39,973 bases of DNA from positions 1 to 39,973 of IMG/VR virus record IMGVR_UViG_3300005613_000165, one strand, 5' to 3'. Position 1 is the first letter of the stretch, and every line of letters starts with the position of its first letter. The translations under genes were made by a program, and so were the position numbers. Below, piece by piece: positions 16,185 through 38,022 of the stretch. Source of the stretch: a virus. A model generated the notes under the pieces. That model did not search any database, had not been told where the DNA came from, and saw only the letters and a program-made list of their open reading frames with translations.

Positions 16185-17288
16185 TTATGCATTACCTACA
16201 CCAGCATTAGGATTAGGTTGTTGGGGTTGTTCTCCACCTTGTTCTCCACCACCTTGCTGGGTATTTAAAGTGATTTTATTTAACTCACCTTTTGTTTTAG
16301 GTCCAATAATACCATCCACCTTTAAACCTTTCATTGCTTGAAAATATGCAACCGCGGCTATAGTTTTATCGTCAAAATTGGGGTCAGAAGTATTAATGTT
16401 TAAATCTTCAATAACCTTTGGTAATGCTTGATTTATTTTCATTTTAGCCGTTATCACTTCATCACTACTACTACCTCTTTTTAATAATCCACTCGAACCA
16501 CTTTTAGCTCTGTTTCCTTGTTGTTGACCGCTTTGTTGTTGTTGACCGCTTTGTTGTTGTTCACCACCAGTACCTGAAGTTACACTCTTAACTTCATCAT
16601 TATCTAACTGTTCCGATAAGTTTAAATCTTGTCTCTCCTCAGCACATCTAGCCTTTTCCCCCGTATCTGAATTACCCTTATAAAGTTTTCCAGTACTTAA
16701 GGCAACCCTAAATAACACACCATTAGTTTTAAATTCAAAAAGTTTATCACCACCATAAGGGAAAACTCGAACATCTGTATAACTATCATGTTCCAAACAT
16801 GGCCATTTTTCATAAAATGCCCTAGCATCACGTTTGGTTGCCTCATCTTTAGTTATGATATCGAAACTTTTAATATTTTTACCCCATTGGTCCATAGTAA
16901 AATGTAAAGTATATACCTTACTTTTCGCATTCAAAATATTTTGAATCTTTAAAAGTTCAATTTTATCTGAAGTGCCGAATTCATCTTTCAATAACGCATT
17001 AAGACCTGATTCACCATTCATCTCTGCGGTCATTAATTTATTCATAACCACATCAAATTTAGCATCGGGAATACTTTGTAACGCAAGTCTAAATCGAGCC
17101 TCATTTGTACCAGGACCTCTTGATGCTTTTACCAAGTCATCTTTAGCCGAAACAAAATCAGGGTCGGCATCTTGTTTATTATCAGTTTCGGCACCTTGTT
17201 CATTCAAATATTGTCTCGATGTGGCTGAGGTATGCATCTTTAAAATCCTCTCTCTTTCGGATTCGTCAAGTAAAAATAATTTTTTCAT
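16185..17288 (-). CDS. Tagged peptidoglycan-binding protein, 367 aa
   Basis: Begins MKKLFLLDESERERILKMHT and continues to YLNEQ (LNE then Q at about 30-31). A Gln/Gly-rich linker (about 240-262) leads to a C-terminal peptidoglycan-binding domain (about 268-345) with the family's VAYFQAMKGLKVDGIIGPKT pattern. The central 200 residues are unassigned, with no hydrolase motif visible. The domain points to a virion or lysis component touching the cell wall. Minus-strand TATTTAT at 17304-17310 lies 15 nt upstream; a terminator follows 20 bp downstream. Confidence 0.85.
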   Translation of the reverse strand: MKKLFLLDESERERILKMHTSATSRQYLNEQGAETDNKQDADPDFVSAKDDLVKASRGPGTNEARFRLALQSIPDAKFDVVMNKLMTAEMNGESGLNALLKDEFGTSDKIELLKIQNILNAKSKVYTLHFTMDQWGKNIKSFDIITKDEATKRDARAFYEKWPCLEHDSYTDVRVFPYGGDKLFEFKTNGVLFRVALSTGKLYKGNSDTGEKARCAEERQDLNLSEQLDNDEVKSVTSGTGGEQQQSGQQQQSGQQQGNRAKSGSSGLLKRGSSSDEVITAKMKINQALPKVIEDLNINTSDPNFDDKTIAAVAYFQAMKGLKVDGIIGPKTKGELNKITLNTQQGGGEQGGEQPQQPNPNAGVGNA

Positions 17289-28399: not shown

Positions 28400-29155
28400 T
28401 TAGTTGGATAAAGGTGCTTTAATTGGTGGGTGTGATTGGTAGTTTTCGTATTTTTTATTTTTAGATTTTATTCTCCATAAAATAGTTGGTGATGGAACTC
28501 CTGTTTGTCTAGACGCTTCCACTAAACTTTCATAGATGATACCATCAATAGTAACTTTTTTCATATTTGTTGGTTTTTTTCCTTTTCTATTTTCACTTAA
28601 TTTCTTTTTAGTTTCTTCTGAATGTTTTTTTCCGAAAAATGGATTATTAACACCTGATTTATCTCTACAATTTATACAAGTTTCGTTAATAGGTTTTATT
28701 TTAACCCCACATTCACAATATTTAAAACTCACACCACCTCTCCAGTTTGGGTTATTTTCCATAGGTTGTGAATGTTTTTCTTTTTTTTCTTCATCAGCCA
28801 TTAAACCATATCTTTTTCTAACTGATTCTGTCATTTTTTTAATAATCTTATCTCTATTAGGATTATTAGTTAAATTATCACCACCACTCGATTTTAAACC
28901 AATATTATAATCAGGGTTTAAATCTAAATAATATTGTTCCATTTCAAGTAAAAATATTTCATCACACTCTTCTACAACCTCAAAAGAAAAATTATCTTCA
29001 CCATATTTATCCCAAGCTCTTTGTAATGGAACATTATGGTGTTTACCACCATTCAAATGATTTTTATGTGTTACCCATCTTTTTTCTATATTTTTTGATG
29101 ACCCGTAATAACACTTATCATTTACCAAATTTTTTATTCTATAAATACCAATCAT
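28400..29155 (-). CDS. GIY-YIG homing-type endonuclease with ThyA-like C-terminus
   Basis: 251 aa. N-terminal GIY-YIG nuclease (about 1-90): GIYRIKN, CYYGSSKNIEKRW with the catalytic Arg, and EMEQYYLD with the catalytic Glu. Then a CxC/CxxC zinc site (about 137-153), NUMOD3 (NNPFFGKKHSEETKKKLSE) and a NUMOD1-like helix-turn-helix (LVEASRQTGVPSPTILWRIK). The last 13 residues, YQSHPPIKAPLSN, match the ThyA C-terminus (YQSHPTIKMPLSN) of the gene directly upstream. This suggests insertion at the 3' end of thyA, with the old ThyA tail now fused to the endonuclease. Confidence 0.9.
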   Translation of the reverse strand: MIGIYRIKNLVNDKCYYGSSKNIEKRWVTHKNHLNGGKHHNVPLQRAWDKYGEDNFSFEVVEECDEIFLLEMEQYYLDLNPDYNIGLKSSGGDNLTNNPNRDKIIKKMTESVRKRYGLMADEEKKEKHSQPMENNPNWRGGVSFKYCECGVKIKPINETCINCRDKSGVNNPFFGKKHSEETKKKLSENRKGKKPTNMKKVTIDGIIYESLVEASRQTGVPSPTILWRIKSKNKKYENYQSHPPIKAPLSN

Positions 29156-29216: not shown

Positions 29217-30362
29217 TTAATTAGAGAGTGGCATTTTTATGGTAGGATGACTTTGATACCCCTCAATTTTAAAATCAGATATTGAACAACTATTTAAAAA
29301 TTCATCTATTGTACCTGTAAAGTTTACACCATCTGAAATAACTAATTTCGGTAATGGATATGGTTCCCTAATTAATTGTTCTTTCACACCATCTACCTGA
29401 TTTTTATAAATGTGACAATCACCCATATTAGTAATCAATTCATCAGGAACCATATTAACCATTCTACCAATTATTTCAAGCAATAATGCATAAGATGCGA
29501 TATTAAATGGTGTCCCTAATGGAACATCTTGACTTCTGGCATTATACATCAAGGAGATTGCTCTGGTTGGAACAGAATCACCATATACTTTAGGTTCTCC
29601 TCTGTAAAGGTATTTATTAGCTTCGTGTTCTGGGTCTTCAGAATTTCTAACCCAATCTACATTATCAATAACCCATTTTTGCCTTTCATCATCACTCAAC
29701 TCTCTTGTATAAACTTGAAATCCGTAATGACAAGGTGGAAGTACCATTTCACCCAATTCACCTACATTCCAAGCTGAAACCATTAATCGTCTTGAATCTG
29801 GGTTTGTTTTGAGGTCTTTGATTAGGTTTGCAATTTGGTCTATTCCCTCAATATTCCATTTCAACATGGGTCTATCTGGGTGTGTTGGGTCTATTTTATC
29901 TGTTGCCTCCCATTTAAGCGTATTCCAACTTCTCCATTGTTTACCATAGATAGGGCCTAACTCACCCCACTTTTTGGCAAACTCATCATCTGTTTTGATT
30001 TTGTTGATGAACTTATCTTTGTTAATAATGAATTCCACTTCACTACCTTCAGGTAAGGTATTCAAATACTTTTCAAAATTCCTATAATAGTTAGCAAAGG
30101 CATCACCATCCCAAATATGACATCCATTCTCAACCAAATACTTAATGTTGGTATCTCCTTTTAGAAACCATAGCAACTCGGTTACCATAGTTTTGAATGC
30201 CATCTTCTTGGTGGTCAGCAATGGATAACCTTCAGACATATTATGTCTAATTTGTCTACCAAATACTGAGATGGTTCCAGTACCTGTACGGTCTTTCTTC
30301 TCCACACCATTGTTAATTATATCGACCAACAGGTCCTTATATTTTCGGTCCAAACTGTTCAT
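29217..30362 (-). CDS. thyA: Thymidylate synthase ThyA
   Basis: 381 aa, longer than the 264 of E. coli because of insertions around 95-135 and in the C-terminal half. Motifs: RTGTGTISVFGRQIRHNM near the N-terminus, GPIYGKQWRSW, PDSRRLMVSAWN, active-site LPPCHYGFQ (Cys211), and C-terminal GYQSHPTIKMPLSN. It methylates dUMP to dTMP using methylene-tetrahydrofolate; the DHFR-like gene at 22179 would recycle the cofactor. The frame is intact. The endonuclease ORF follows. Confidence 0.95.
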   Translation of the reverse strand: MNSLDRKYKDLLVDIINNGVEKKDRTGTGTISVFGRQIRHNMSEGYPLLTTKKMAFKTMVTELLWFLKGDTNIKYLVENGCHIWDGDAFANYYRNFEKYLNTLPEGSEVEFIINKDKFINKIKTDDEFAKKWGELGPIYGKQWRSWNTLKWEATDKIDPTHPDRPMLKWNIEGIDQIANLIKDLKTNPDSRRLMVSAWNVGELGEMVLPPCHYGFQVYTRELSDDERQKWVIDNVDWVRNSEDPEHEANKYLYRGEPKVYGDSVPTRAISLMYNARSQDVPLGTPFNIASYALLLEIIGRMVNMVPDELITNMGDCHIYKNQVDGVKEQLIREPYPLPKLVISDGVNFTGTIDEFLNSCSISDFKIEGYQSHPTIKMPLSN

Positions 30363-32845: not shown

Positions 32846-33010
32846 TTAACCAAATAAAAGGACCTTGACAATAATAATAACTAAGATGATACCTAGTACC
32901 CATCCAGCGATGCGTCCTACAATTGAAAATATGTTGGTAGCCCCTTTTATTAACTGACCACCAAAACTAAAAATAACGAGTAAAATGACTAATAAGATTA
33001 TTGATTCCAT
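32846..33010 (-). CDS. Very small two-helix membrane protein, 54 aa (holin-like candidate)
   Basis: Frame MESIILLVILLVIFSFGGQL, then IKGATNIFSIVGRIAGWVLG and IILVIIIVKVLLFG: two hydrophobic helices separated by a short basic loop, like small class II holins or other membrane microproteins. Upstream on the minus strand is a host-type promoter (33028-33059). Function not proven; lysozyme, peptidoglycan-binding and spanin-like genes elsewhere make a lysis role plausible. Confidence 0.7.
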   Translation of the reverse strand: MESIILLVILLVIFSFGGQLIKGATNIFSIVGRIAGWVLGIILVIIIVKVLLFG

Positions 33011-33027
33011 GATTTTTTTATTTGTAA

Positions 33028-33059
33028 CAAATATAGGAAACTTTTTTCACACCACCAAA
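33028..33059 (-). promoter_or_regulatory. Bacteroidota-type promoter
   Basis: On the minus strand TTTG (33056-33059), 20 nt, then TATATTTG (33028-33035), the classic spacing. It sits between the ncRNA terminator and the 54-aa membrane protein. Confidence 0.7.
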
Positions 33060-33067
33060 ACTTTTGA

Positions 33068-34000
33068 GCAAAAAAAAACCTCAGTCGACTAAAACTGAGG
33101 TTAAGGAAAGAATATATAGGTATAATACGCTGAGATTACACGTCTATGTGACCCATCTTTTGTGAGATTATCCTGATAATCGGTTCCTCACTTATCCACC
33201 ACAGTTGCCCATGGTATCGAGTCAGTGTCGGTTATTTAAGTGAACCACTCTTCTCGTTAACAACTACTCAACTACTACTCTACTCTGTTAAGTCTTGCGA
33301 ACTCACTAAGGGATGGCCGTCCCACCAGGTATTTCACAATTGACATTGAAAGACTTGCGGTCTGTTCAACGACTTCGTTAGTCTCACGACCCGAAGTGTT
33401 AGACACCTTTCGTTGTCAACGCCCGAAGACTTGTGCTTGTCATTTTAATTGTTCATAATTAAAATTAGCAACTGTGGAAAAAAAGACGATGTGCTTCGGG
33501 AGAAGGTCCGTTCCTTTTGAGAACAAAATGCTTCACACCATCCTGTAAGTCTGCAAACTTACGGTCATTTCAGGACTACGTTGAGTTAAGACTTTCGTCA
33601 ATCCCCTCGGTAACCCGTTAGACTGGTACCCAGCCCTACAACTCATAGCAGTGAGTGTCGAACCGTCACCTGTACCTTTTCCTATTGATGTCACCATCTC
33701 AACTTCGATATTCCACGGACTCGAAGTGATTAAACCCTCTTAGCAGTTGCCCTCAAGGTTCTAACCGTAGGTACTTTGTTTAGTTGTCAAGTCTGTGACC
33801 TGCGAACGTTCACGGTGTACTAATCCCGTTTCAGTCCCTTTAGTCCCATTGCTGGGGTTATCTGACGACGCTAAACCGCCGATAGTTGTTATCTGTTTAA
33901 TAGAAAGGGGTTAATCTTTTTAAGAATTTCATAAACTTATGAAAAACAGACAACCAACTATGAGTATTTCAAAGAACGTTTTCAGTGTTTCAACTGAATT
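33068..34000 (-). ncRNA. Candidate giant structured non-coding RNA
   Basis: About 0.9 kb with no supported ORF on either strand, visibly higher GC than its neighbours. On the minus strand it lies between two tandem host-type promoters (34007-34037, 34113-34142) and a strong terminator (33069-33102). Local hairpins include GTAAGT-N6-ACTTAC (33545-33562), GAC-GAAA-GTC with a GNRA loop (33590-33599), GGGA-N6-TCCC (33310-33323) and TTAACA...TGTTAA (33257-33291). Size, phage setting and isolation recall the large ornate phage RNAs GOLLD and ROOL, but I cannot test that. Exact ends are unknown. Confidence 0.7.
33069..33102 (-). terminator. Terminator of the ncRNA
   Basis: Stem AACCTCAGT (33077-33085) / ACTGAGGTT (33094-33102), followed on the minus strand by a T-run (33069-33078 as A on the plus strand). 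No T-run follows on the plus strand, which fixes the RNA's direction. Confidence 0.9.
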
Positions 34001-34006
34001 GTTTGA

Positions 34007-34037
34007 CAAATCTACAACAAAGTTTTCAATCCGTCAA
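34007..34037 (-). promoter_or_regulatory. Proximal ncRNA promoter
   Basis: Minus-strand TTGACG (34032-34037), 17 nt, TAGATTTG (34007-34014). GTACTTGAC precedes it, as at the distal promoter. The RNA would start near 34000. Confidence 0.75.
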
Positions 34038-34112
34038 GTACTTTCCAAAAAAAATTTCTGATTTTATCAGTAGGGTAAAATATAAATATACCGTTTTCCC
34101 TGAAAAGTTATA

Positions 34113-34142
34113 CAAAGGTACAAAAAAATTTCTTTCTGTCAA
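34113..34142 (-). promoter_or_regulatory. Distal ncRNA promoter
   Basis: Minus-strand TTGACA (34137-34142), 16 nt, TACCTTTG (34113-34120), an excellent match to the Bacteroidota primary promoter. GTACTTGAC occurs here and at 34032-34040, so the two promoters look like duplicates. Confidence 0.8.
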
Positions 34143-34161
34143 GTACCTAAGTGAATTTTTT

Positions 34162-34383
34162 TTAAGTTAATGGATTCCCACCCGCATCAAAGTTTATCTT
34201 CAAAGCTTCTAACTTATCTTCAGCGGCAGCCAATTGGTCTACAAATTTATCCATCTCTTCTAAATGTTGGGGGTGTTCACCAATACCAACAGAACTGTTG
34301 AAGTAAATGTTTAGAGTTGCCATTGCTTCTGCTTTTTCGGCTTCATACTTTTTTACTAAAGCATTGTAAAGTAAATTTTTCAT
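34162..34383 (-). CDS. Small helical protein, 73 aa
   Basis: Almost all helix, Ala/Glu/Lys-rich (LVKKYEAEKAEAMATLNIYF; DQLAAAEDKLEALKINFDAG). ATGA overlap with the Nudix gene upstream (34380-34383). Small helical phage proteins of this type are often structural or regulatory; no family recognised. Stops about 20 bp before the distal ncRNA promoter. Confidence 0.75.
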   Translation of the reverse strand: MKNLLYNALVKKYEAEKAEAMATLNIYFNSSVGIGEHPQHLEEMDKFVDQLAAAEDKLEALKINFDAGGNPLT

Positions 34384-34817: not shown

Positions 34818-35171
34818 ATGAAAGTAATAATAGACAACAATATTTTTAAAGTCAAACTTTGCACCACGCCAAAATCAATTCAAGAAGGTATGATGGGTAA
34901 AAACTTTGACGAGACCTTTAATGGTATGTTATTCTTCCTCCCACCAGGTGAACAATCTTTTTGGATGTATAACTGTATTGTACCTTTGGATATTATTATG
35001 ATTAACGGTAATGAAATTACGGATATTCACCATAACTGTCAACCCTGTGAAAATATGGGTGAGTGTGATTCTTATAAAGGATTTGGTGATTCTGTATTAG
35101 AAATACCTGGTGGATATTGTGAAAATAACGACATAAAAAAAGGAGACACGGTCTCCTTTTCTATGTATTAA
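34818..35171 (+). CDS. DUF192 family protein, 117 aa
   Basis: Matches the DUF192 pattern: IQEGMMGKNFDETFNGMLFF, SFWMYNCIVPLDIIMINGNE, PCENMGECDSYKGFGDSVLE and IPGGYCENNDIKKGDTVSF. The family is widespread in bacteria and some phages, of unknown function, usually exported in bacteria; no signal peptide is present here. Cysteines PCxxxxxC are conserved in many members. Overlaps the convergent gene end by 4 bp. Confidence 0.85.
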   Translation: MKVIIDNNIFKVKLCTTPKSIQEGMMGKNFDETFNGMLFFLPPGEQSFWMYNCIVPLDIIMINGNEITDIHHNCQPCENMGECDSYKGFGDSVLEIPGGYCENNDIKKGDTVSFSMY

Positions 35172-37432
35172 ACTCTTGCGATTGGTTTGGGGTTTATATT
35201 ACCCCTTTTTATAACTTTACTAACCAATCCTCCTGTACCCCAAGTTTCCAAATCCTTAGTACTTGCCAATTCTTCTGCAGTTATTCCATCATCATTTAAC
35301 ATTTGCATTAAATCTTTATAATATGGTAACTTCAAAGTCTTAACTGTTGCCATAATACCAGTACTCATATCAGGATAATTTTTAACCCCAACACTATTGT
35401 AATTACTAATACCTGACACCCTCATCATTTTTGTGGTATTAAATGGATTATAAGTTGCGGTACCACTTTCTGCTTGTCTCCAAGCTTTAAAGAATTTCAT
35501 TTTTTCTTCTGTTGGTGTTACACCTAACTTATCAAATATCTCATCAAAAAAGTATTTCATAAACTGACCATCACTTAAACTTTCAACACCCTTAGAACGT
35601 AATTCTTCTTCATAATCTTCAAGTTCAATAACTTGGTCCAAATATTTTTCAATATCTTTTGATGTTAAGTTTTCATCTTTTAACAACTCATACATTTTTA
35701 ATGCTGTTTCCTCATCAAAAATTCCTTTTTGTTGTTTTTTGTATTCAATCTCGTGGTCATCTTTGAATTTTCTAAGTTGACCTGCAGTTTCAGGACCAAA
35801 CAAACCATCTACACCAAACCTTGGTAAATGATATCCTAATAATTCCAATCCAATCTGAAAAGTTTCTACTGTTTTTTGGAATTCATATCCACCCCTTTCT
35901 TGTTGTCCAATATTACCGTCAAATTCTTCAAGTGTCCTTAAAAATTCTGTTACGTTATCATCAACCAAATCCGCAGTTTTTGGGTCATCAATCTTTTCTT
36001 CTTCTTGTTCATTCAACCCTTTTGATTCGTTTATCTTTTCCTTAAGTTTTTTAACAAACTCATTTTGAATCATCTTTGCAAATTTAACATAAGGTGCATC
36101 TTCAGAATTTGGGTCATATCTATAAGGACCTTCAGGTGGTCTCTTACTTCTACCAAAATAATTAAGTGCTGAAATGTTTGTAATACATTTGTGACCACCA
36201 GAGTTCGCTTGAATCATTTCCCACGCTGGTACACCTAACTTATCCAATATTGTCCACTCCTCATCAGATAATTCCATATATGGTTTGTTCATAATTTCTT
36301 TTAACCTATCCATATATTGTTCACCACCTTCGATTGAACGAACTTTATCACCATAAAAGGCTTCCAAATCCGCATTGGTGAATCCAACTGACTCAGGACT
36401 AAATTGTTTACTACTTTCTGAAACCCACTTAATTGTAGATAACGGAATAATCTTATCTCTTAATTGTCCTTCCCATTTTGCTAGTACTTCTTGTGCAATC
36501 TCACCTAAGTTAACACCTTTGAGTTCTCTTTCTTTTTTGAATGGATTACATGATGCCTGAACCAATCCCATCGGCCAAGCGATAACTAAGAAATCCGCAT
36601 CAGGATTATTTTTAAATGGTGTGTATCGGTCGTAAGAACCAGGTTTAAACATTGAACCTCCACCATATTGAATAATTATACCATCCTCAAATCTAACGTT
36701 TTCACTTTCTTTTTGTTTTCTAACATAACTTTGTTGGTTAATTGCCATTTCCTCAGGAAGAGCAAATCCTCTTTCCGCGGCAATTCTATTAATATTTTGA
36801 AATATGTTTAAAAGTGATGGAGTTGATTTCATTACCAACTCTTCCAAAAACCCTGGTTTGTTTTTGTAAGCCAAAAGTAATTTGTTGGTTGCAAGACCCA
36901 AAGCCATTTTATTCTTTTGTAGTGACTTATCCTTTTGAATCTTAAATACGAAGTTCATAATATCATCAGGTGTAAGACCGAATCTTGCAAAGTCTGCGGA
37001 GTCAACAGTTGAAATAAGTGTTACATCTTCAGATGGAAATATTTCTTTTGGTGACATGATTTGAGACAATGTTGCCACATTTGAACGAGATGGTCTAAAC
37101 GATGTTGAGGTGTCGCCTTCAACACCTGTCTGACTGTCGTGGTGGTCTGTATGAACCACAAACATCGGCTTACCGTGAGCAAAGTCTACTAATACTGGCA
37201 TTGTATCACCCTTCGCATCTTCTTTCTTAACCGCAAATTCTTTATCTCCATATTGAATGATTTCAGAATCAACTACTTTGATTCCGTTATCTTCCAAATA
37301 ATTCTTCATAGCCAAAGCTGTTGTAACCCCATCCAAATCCTGATGGAAGTATATTTTGGCTTTTGGATATCTATCGGCCAATGCCTTGATATTTCTTAAA
37401 CCTGATTCTTTAATTATTTTTTTCATCAACAT
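35168..37432 (-). CDS. DHH phosphoesterase fused to peptidoglycan-binding and muralytic-like domains, 754 aa
   Basis: Tag-like N-terminus (MLMKKIIKESGLRNIKALAD; IKE-S). DHH domain about 25-350: FHQDLDGVTTALAM (Asp32, Asp34), LVDFAHG, VHTDHHDSQ (His97-98) and VDSADFARFG, metal-binding motifs of the DHH/RecJ superfamily. Peptidoglycan-binding domain about 517-586 (FQIGLELLGYHLPRFGVDGL). The last 129 residues, including AWRQAESGTATYNPFNTTKM and YNSVGVKNYPDMSTGIMATV, fit a lysozyme or transglycosylase-like fold with Glu655 as candidate catalyst. Joining these in one chain is unusual. Starts 7 bp inside the lysozyme gene. Confidence 0.85.
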   Translation of the reverse strand: MLMKKIIKESGLRNIKALADRYPKAKIYFHQDLDGVTTALAMKNYLEDNGIKVVDSEIIQYGDKEFAVKKEDAKGDTMPVLVDFAHGKPMFVVHTDHHDSQTGVEGDTSTSFRPSRSNVATLSQIMSPKEIFPSEDVTLISTVDSADFARFGLTPDDIMNFVFKIQKDKSLQKNKMALGLATNKLLLAYKNKPGFLEELVMKSTPSLLNIFQNINRIAAERGFALPEEMAINQQSYVRKQKESENVRFEDGIIIQYGGGSMFKPGSYDRYTPFKNNPDADFLVIAWPMGLVQASCNPFKKERELKGVNLGEIAQEVLAKWEGQLRDKIIPLSTIKWVSESSKQFSPESVGFTNADLEAFYGDKVRSIEGGEQYMDRLKEIMNKPYMELSDEEWTILDKLGVPAWEMIQANSGGHKCITNISALNYFGRSKRPPEGPYRYDPNSEDAPYVKFAKMIQNEFVKKLKEKINESKGLNEQEEEKIDDPKTADLVDDNVTEFLRTLEEFDGNIGQQERGGYEFQKTVETFQIGLELLGYHLPRFGVDGLFGPETAGQLRKFKDDHEIEYKKQQKGIFDEETALKMYELLKDENLTSKDIEKYLDQVIELEDYEEELRSKGVESLSDGQFMKYFFDEIFDKLGVTPTEEKMKFFKAWRQAESGTATYNPFNTTKMMRVSGISNYNSVGVKNYPDMSTGIMATVKTLKLPYYKDLMQMLNDDGITAEELASTKDLETWGTGGLVSKVIKRGNINPKPIARV

Positions 37433-38022
37433 ATATTATTTTGACAAAATAGTTTTCGGGTTTCTACTCTTCTTTCATCGTGACCCCAATCACCATTTTC
37501 TATTTTATTCGCCGCACTTCTATAATTACCATTTTCAATATCACTAACAATTGAAGAATTTCTTAATCTTCTACAACCCATATTATATGCCATGTCAATC
37601 ATTGCCATATACATACCTCTAGTTAACCTTCTACCATTTTTATCAGTGTCCTTCGCGTCTTCTTGCCATCTTTTTATACAGTCAGCAGCACTATTGATAT
37701 CTATTGCAGATAATTTCATAGCCTCAGATTGACTCATTTTATTTAAATATTTTTCAATAATATCTGGATTTGTTGTACCATAACCAATAGTTAAAGTTCC
37801 TTTAGGTCTACCACTGTTTGGGTCATAAGGTTCTGTAGGAAAAACACCATCATCATAAACATAAGGTATAAATTTTTCCCATTTTCTAATATAATCAAAA
37901 ATAGGCTGACCCGCACTTCTACCACCTTCATACCAATATACCATTTCTTCTGACTGCTCATTAATTTGGTATAGGTTTTTAATTCTTAAAACTTCTTCTT
38001 CTGATAATATTAAACGAGGCAT
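37426..38022 (-). CDS. Tagged T4-type lysozyme (GH24), 198 aa
   Basis: Tag MPRLILSEEEVLRIKNLYQI followed by NEQSEE (INE-Q). GH24 core from about 32: IRKWEKFIPYVYDD (catalytic Glu), then LTIGYGTT, and the C-terminal helix-loop pattern (RGMYMAMIDMAYNMGCRRL). It would cleave peptidoglycan. No signal peptide, so release needs a holin, or it is carried in the virion, as the tag would suggest. Minus-strand TATTTAT at 38037-38043 lies 14 nt upstream, next to a terminator. Confidence 0.88.
   Translation of the reverse strand: MPRLILSEEEVLRIKNLYQINEQSEEMVYWYEGGRSAGQPIFDYIRKWEKFIPYVYDDGVFPTEPYDPNSGRPKGTLTIGYGTTNPDIIEKYLNKMSQSEAMKLSAIDINSAADCIKRWQEDAKDTDKNGRRLTRGMYMAMIDMAYNMGCRRLRNSSIVSDIENGNYRSAANKIENGDWGHDERRVETRKLFCQNNIC

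What the first reader, a model, noticed from the sequence alone, without database searches (positions are those of the whole stretch)
33068..34142. Isolated ~0.9 kb structured RNA gene in a phage
A long ORF-free block with higher GC, several hairpins including a GNRA loop, a strong directional terminator and two tandem host-type promoters. Giant phage-linked RNAs such as GOLLD and ROOL have this size and setting. If it is a new class or a new branch in Bacteroidota phages, it would be notable.
Basis: partly seen in the sequence, partly recalled or inferred. Interest (0 to 1): 0.85.

Follow-up and report, generated by a model that had tools for sequence, protein, structure and literature searches.

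The report
GOLLD giant RNA with rRNA-like leader
The block is a gene for GOLLD, a known giant phage RNA that forms hollow RNA cages, here in a branch from phages that probably infect Bacteroidota; in these phages it sits behind promoters typical of those bacteria and a short signal (boxA) that the bacteria place before their ribosomal RNA genes.

Summary
Window 33077-34142 (minus strand) is a non-coding gene: two tandem Bacteroidota-type promoters, about 0.92 kb of structured RNA, then an intrinsic terminator. Its 3' half (33543-33127) matches Rfam RF02032, GOLLD, over the whole model at 304 bits (cut-off 150). So it belongs to a known family whose env-38 member forms a 14-mer RNA nanocage; it is not a new class. 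Homologues were found in at least 71 viral contigs, often downstream of the same 754-aa gene, and in two megaphages, LR745206 and LR756502. Among 21 close relatives the 5' half, absent from Rfam, folds into 88 pairs, 36 with compensatory changes; slid controls give 3-12. This branch has a shorter part of the 'cap' domain (114-131 nt against about 190). The new element is the leader. GTTCTTTGAAA lies just after the promoter; GTTCTTTG occurs in 18 of 23 non-redundant GOLLD leaders (0.14 expected) and in 12 of 18 Bacteroidota 16S leaders (0.15 expected), and matches published boxA antitermination sites. Divergent GOLLDs without Bacteroidota promoters lack it. Most likely, host RNA polymerase transcribes this cage RNA with rRNA-type antitermination. 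The boxA function, cage assembly and host are inferred, not shown. I found no report linking GOLLD to boxA in the papers held.

The parts
34113..34142 (-). Upstream promoter, Bacteroidota type (TTGACA...TACCTTTG)
   Evidence: tandem copy about 105 nt upstream of the second promoter in many relatives
34007..34037 (-). Proximal promoter, Bacteroidota type (TTGACGG...TAGATTTG); start of transcription inferred near 34001
   Evidence: 37 of 38 close relatives carry a promoter of this type; 1.5 expected
33981..33998 (-). Small hairpin UUCAGU-UGAAAC-ACUGAA directly 5' of boxA (boxB-like position)
   Evidence: stem differs by compensatory changes in relatives (e.g. GAUGA/UCAUC, GGUGA/UCACC, UCAGUA/UACUGA); absent where transcription appears to start at boxA
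33967..33977 (-). boxA-like element GTTCTTTGAAA, as in Bacteroidota 16S rRNA leaders
   Evidence: only exact copy of GTTCTTTGAAA in the 40-kb window
33544..33881 (-). GOLLD 5' (cap) domain; the second half (33671-33544) is the short form of this branch
   Evidence: covariation; comparison with the longer form
33127..33543 (-). GOLLD 3' domain, full match to Rfam RF02032
   Evidence: 304.1 bits, E 2.8e-86, cut-off 150
33425..33482 (-). Variable A/U-rich linker inside the 3' domain (place of the disordered loop inside the cage); no tRNA in it
   Evidence: approximate borders
33310..33323 (-). Hairpin P21a with loop containing self-complementary GGCC (place of the cage's kissing bridge B8)
   Evidence: searches (central GC kept in all 21 relatives; PMC12286853) for the bridge
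33077..33102 (-). Intrinsic terminator
   Evidence: covarying stem

Best explanation
This is a GOLLD RNA gene of a large phage that most likely infects Bacteroidota. Host RNA polymerase starts at one of two tandem host-type promoters. A boxA-type element in the leader then loads the host's rRNA antitermination factors (NusB with S10), so that the roughly 0.92-kb untranslated RNA is completed up to its own terminator. The RNA folds into a 5' cap domain and a 3' ring domain and, as shown for the GOLLD env-38 RNA, assembles with copies of itself into a hollow RNA cage. Shown here: family membership, covarying structure, promoter, boxA-like element and terminator. Inferred: binding of Nus factors, cage assembly of this member, and the host. 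The purpose of the cage in infection remains unknown for the whole family.
For: RF02032 match at 304.1 bits over the full model. At least 71 viral records carry it, all but one truncated copy over the cut-off. Two megaphages of 635 and 642 kb carry it at 287 and 275 bits. In the 5' region, 98.4% of cells pair, 36 of 88 pairs show two-sided changes, and the covariation score is 0.348 against 0.152 shuffled and at most 0.080 slid. Promoters of Bacteroidota type occur in 37 of 38 close relatives. GTTCTTTG occurs in 18 of 23 non-redundant leaders (0.14 expected) and in 12 of 18 Bacteroidota 16S leaders (0.15 expected). It is about 70-fold denser in GOLLD leaders than elsewhere in the same contigs. 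The published boxA of a Legionella CRISPR array is GTTCTTTAAAA, and boxA raised long non-coding transcription about 10-fold there (PMC7862264). The GC centre of the L21a kissing loop is kept in 21 of 21 sequences.
Against: No transcript, protein binding or particle was measured. BoxA is inferred from sequence and position. LR756502 (L332) has no clear boxA, and five divergent GOLLDs lack both promoter type and boxA, so boxA is not a feature of the whole family. In some relatives (L173, L176, L179, L182) the element is GTTCTTACA, a poorer match. Several group-B leaders have GTTCTTAAAA, which scores no better than chance against the 16S matrix. The host is not demonstrated; the promoter pattern is the main argument.
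Confidence: 0.75

Rival explanations
1. The boxA-like element is real but acts as a decoy: the abundant GOLLD transcript binds NusB and S10 and draws them away from host rRNA operons, so that the phage slows ribosome production.
For: Same element as host 16S leaders; a stable, abundant RNA carrying it could titrate the factors. The cryo-EM paper notes that ribosomes bind GOLLD in pull-downs (PMC12286853).
Against: The element sits right behind the promoter, where a cis signal belongs. A similar element precedes a phage tmRNA, which suggests a general cis role for non-coding genes.
Confidence: 0.12
2. GTTCTTTGAAA is a structural or processing part of the GOLLD RNA, not an antitermination site, and its likeness to the 16S leader is shared use of another factor (for instance a nuclease).
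For: rRNA leaders also serve processing; the element is present across distinct 5' leaders.
Against: It is separated from the structured domain by a poorly conserved spacer, has no pairing partner in the consensus fold, and lies at or outside the 5' end of the region that corresponds to the 420-nt 5' part of env-38.
Confidence: 0.13
3. It is a new class of giant RNA unrelated to GOLLD.
For: The 5' half is not covered by Rfam and blastn finds nothing in the phage or plasmid collections.
Against: Full-length RF02032 match at twice the cut-off. The 5' half shares its first part with other GOLLDs, and both subdomain models recognise the same place in the intermediate loci L380 and L483.
Confidence: 0.01

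Closest known systems
GOLLD RNA (Rfam RF02032; cryo-EM of GOLLD env-38, PMC12286853)
   Same: Full 3' domain, 5' cap domain before it, variable linker, L21a loop with self-complementary centre, phage setting
   Different: No tRNA beside or inside it in this branch; shorter second half of the cap (114-131 nt against about 190); Bacteroidota promoters and a boxA-like leader, not described for GOLLD in the papers held
GOLLD of the huge phages LR745206 and LR756502
   Same: Same family at 287 and 275 bits; LR745206 has GTTCTTTGAAATATTG and, as reported for env-38, lies behind tRNA-Met
   Different: Longer cap half; tRNA neighbours; LR756502 lacks a clear boxA
Bacteroidota rRNA operon leader (promoter, boxA, 16S)
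   Same: Promoter TAnnTTTG followed within tens of bases by GTTCTTTGAAA; hairpin just before boxA as in rrn boxB-boxA order (order from general knowledge)
   Different: Drives a phage RNA cage, not rRNA
boxA upstream of CRISPR arrays (cited in PMC7862264)
   Same: boxA in front of a long untranslated RNA; GTTCTTTAAAA against GTTCTTTGAAA here
   Different: CRISPR array, proteobacterial host

Membership tests
GOLLD (RF02032) | Match to the curated covariance model over the gathering score | tested here: met
   304.1 bits, cut-off 150, model 1-416
GOLLD (RF02032) | Structured 5' domain preceding the 3' domain, total about 800 nt or more | tested here: met
   88 pairs with covariation; boxA to end of terminator T run about 0.91 kb
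   First part aligns with group B; second half is shorter and recognised by the group-B model in only one of 21 relatives at the right place (L173, 23 bits), but both models recognise L380 and L483. No env-38 sequence was at hand.
GOLLD (RF02032) | Location near tRNA genes (usual, not strict) | tested here: not met
   No tRNA in the window or beside the RNA in the six close-relative loci looked at (L001, L158, L173, L184, L160, L180)
GOLLD (RF02032) | Self-complementary L21a loop (intermolecular bridge B8) | tested here: met
   GC centre in 21 of 21; GGCC in most, AGCU in L163
GOLLD (RF02032) | Assembly into a 14-mer cage | not testable with these tools
   Known for env-38 only
ROOL, OLE, HEARO | Match to their Rfam models | tested here: not met
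   No match up to E = 1 in 32950-34250
boxA antitermination element | Consensus as in host rRNA leaders, between promoter and a long untranslated RNA | tested here: met
boxA antitermination element | Binding of NusB/S10 and resistance to termination | not testable with these tools
   needs experiment

The most novel reading that the evidence does not exclude
Phages of Bacteroidota make their GOLLD cage RNA like ribosomal RNA: a host-type promoter, a small hairpin and a boxA element taken from the rRNA leader recruit the host's rRNA antitermination machinery. This would be a general way for such phages to express long non-coding RNAs, a phage tmRNA included, and would link GOLLD to the host's ribosome-making machinery.
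Probability: 0.5. Interest if true: 0.68.

Novelty: new member of a known kind. Interest (0 to 1): 0.5.

Why it matters
GOLLD is one of the largest structured RNAs known, forms protein-free cages and has no known function. This work places a well-populated aquatic branch of it in phages with Bacteroidota signals and in megaphages, and maps its promoter and terminator. It also finds an rRNA-type boxA in its leader, which gives a direct, testable link to host Nus factors and ribosome production.

Tried and rejected
blastn of the RNA against the phage and plasmid collections found nothing. A pattern scan of bacterial genomes gave only chance matches: no locus matched a GOLLD sequence profile. GOLLD in 80 Lactobacillales genomes: no match, so boxA in the classic Lactobacillales GOLLDs could not be tested. 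Three larger genome searches failed on the machine. I first thought the second half of the cap was replaced in this branch; cross-searches with both models show a shortened relative instead. I first thought boxA was universal in GOLLD; five divergent loci lack it. Intermolecular bridge B7 (L20 with J13/15) could not be placed without the env-38 numbering. Mar_Mega_1 (OU342829) is not in the collections. Weak snoRNA and microRNA matches are chance.

Full report
Observation. The block 33068-34142 holds no ORF of 60 aa or more before 33985, has raised GC, a terminator at 33102-33077 on the minus strand and two promoters of the form TTG-N20-TAnnTTTG starting at 34142 and 34037.

Identity. Rfam gives one match in the whole 40-kb window: RF02032 GOLLD at 33543-33127, minus strand, 304.1 bits, cut-off 150, model positions 1-416. 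No other giant-RNA family matches up to E = 1. GOLLD is known from phages and prophages; its env-38 member was shown by cryo-EM to form a closed 14-mer cage, with 5' cap and 3' ring domains and a disordered linker inside (PMC12286853).

Relatives. A GOLLD pattern gave 61 viral contigs, and the 754-aa protein next to the RNA (35168-37432) gave 80 more loci. RF02032 was then found in 34 of 50, 24 of 49 and 16 of 41 records, 71 distinct ones. The protein's closest matches among deposited phages are the 635- and 642-kb phages LR745206 and LR756502. Both carry GOLLD; they are the freshwater and subsurface megaphages related to the marine Mar_Mega_1 (PMC9723777). A contig of 270 kb carries a close relative of the window RNA (L164), so the window is probably a fragment of a large phage genome.

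Structure. Twenty-one non-redundant close relatives were aligned from boxA to terminator (A1), and the 5' region alone as A2. The full RNA folds into 203 pairs, 84 with compensatory changes. The 5' region, absent from Rfam, gives 88 pairs, 36 with compensatory changes. On A2, 98.4% of cells pair, with a covariation score of 0.348 against 0.152 +/- 0.007 for shuffles and 0.025-0.080 for slid partners. The second half of the 5' domain is 114-131 nt here and about 190 nt in the other group. Models of the two forms do not find each other's members, with one weak exception, but both recognise the same place in the intermediate loci L380 and L483. So this branch has a shortened, diverged form, not a foreign domain. 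The loop L21a, which makes a self-kissing bridge in the cage, keeps a self-complementary GC centre in all 21. That fits cage assembly but does not show it.

Leader. In 37 of 38 close relatives and 19 of 27 others a Bacteroidota-type promoter lies upstream, against about 1 expected in each set. Just downstream lies GTTCTTTGAAA (window 33977-33967), often after a small hairpin whose stem changes in a compensatory way. The same element is in the 16S rRNA leaders of Bacteroidota, for example in all four Prevotella operons, after TACCTTTG. In a non-redundant test, GTTCTTTG occurs in 18 of 23 GOLLD leaders (0.14 expected) and 12 of 18 16S leaders (0.15 expected). In the contigs that carry GOLLD it is about 70 times denser in the leader than elsewhere. 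The window has one exact GTTCTTTGAAA in 40 kb. A boxA of published function, from a Legionella CRISPR array, reads GTTCTTTAAAA and improves transcription of long non-coding arrays (PMC7862264). One of the rare other copies behind a promoter precedes a phage tmRNA. I found no paper in the library that joins GOLLD and boxA. Limits: LR756502 has no clear boxA, and five divergent GOLLDs have neither this promoter type nor boxA, so the element follows the Bacteroidota-type branches. Relatives share ancestry, so counts are not independent events.

Mechanism. Most likely the host polymerase makes this RNA from host-type promoters with rRNA-type antitermination, and the RNA then folds and assembles with copies of itself. 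Family membership, fold, promoter, boxA-like element and terminator are shown by sequence. Factor binding, assembly and host are inferred. The role of the cage is unknown for the family.

Host. Promoter type, the 16S-like leader, and a thymidylate synthase closest to Flavobacterium phages (51% identity) point to Bacteroidota; no direct host link was found.

Verdict. A genuine new member of GOLLD, in a shortened-cap branch, with a leader that appears to be taken from the host's rRNA operons. The RNA itself is of a known kind; the leader is the part worth following.

Noticed in passing
L039:4892-5294 (-) and L007 (same region): A phage tmRNA (Rfam RF00023, 74.5 bits, not called by ARAGORN) sits directly behind a Bacteroidota-type promoter and GTTCTTTG, like GOLLD.
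   Followed up: partly
G011 contig (L147, L336): One 59-kb viral contig carries two different GOLLD genes, both with promoter and boxA-like element.
   Followed up: partly
L165, L166, L331: These GOLLDs lie just behind tRNA-Met with a small covarying hairpin before boxA, the setting described for cryo-EM env-38.
   Followed up: partly
L380, L483, L424, L450, L444: Divergent GOLLDs without boxA or Bacteroidota promoter; tRNA-like T-arm pieces lie upstream in some (L380, L483, L450) that ARAGORN does not call.
   Followed up: no
window 29217-30362 (-): Thymidylate synthase of 381 aa, about 110 aa longer than the 266-position Pfam profile it matches end to end; a homing endonuclease gene lies just downstream (28400-29155).
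   Followed up: no
window 35168-37432 (-): 754-aa protein of unknown function, often upstream of GOLLD in relatives; many homologues match only residues 3-471, so the C-terminal part seems to be exchanged.
   Followed up: no
window 16185-17288 (-) and 37426-38022 (-): Two different endolysin-like genes in one 40-kb fragment.
   Followed up: no
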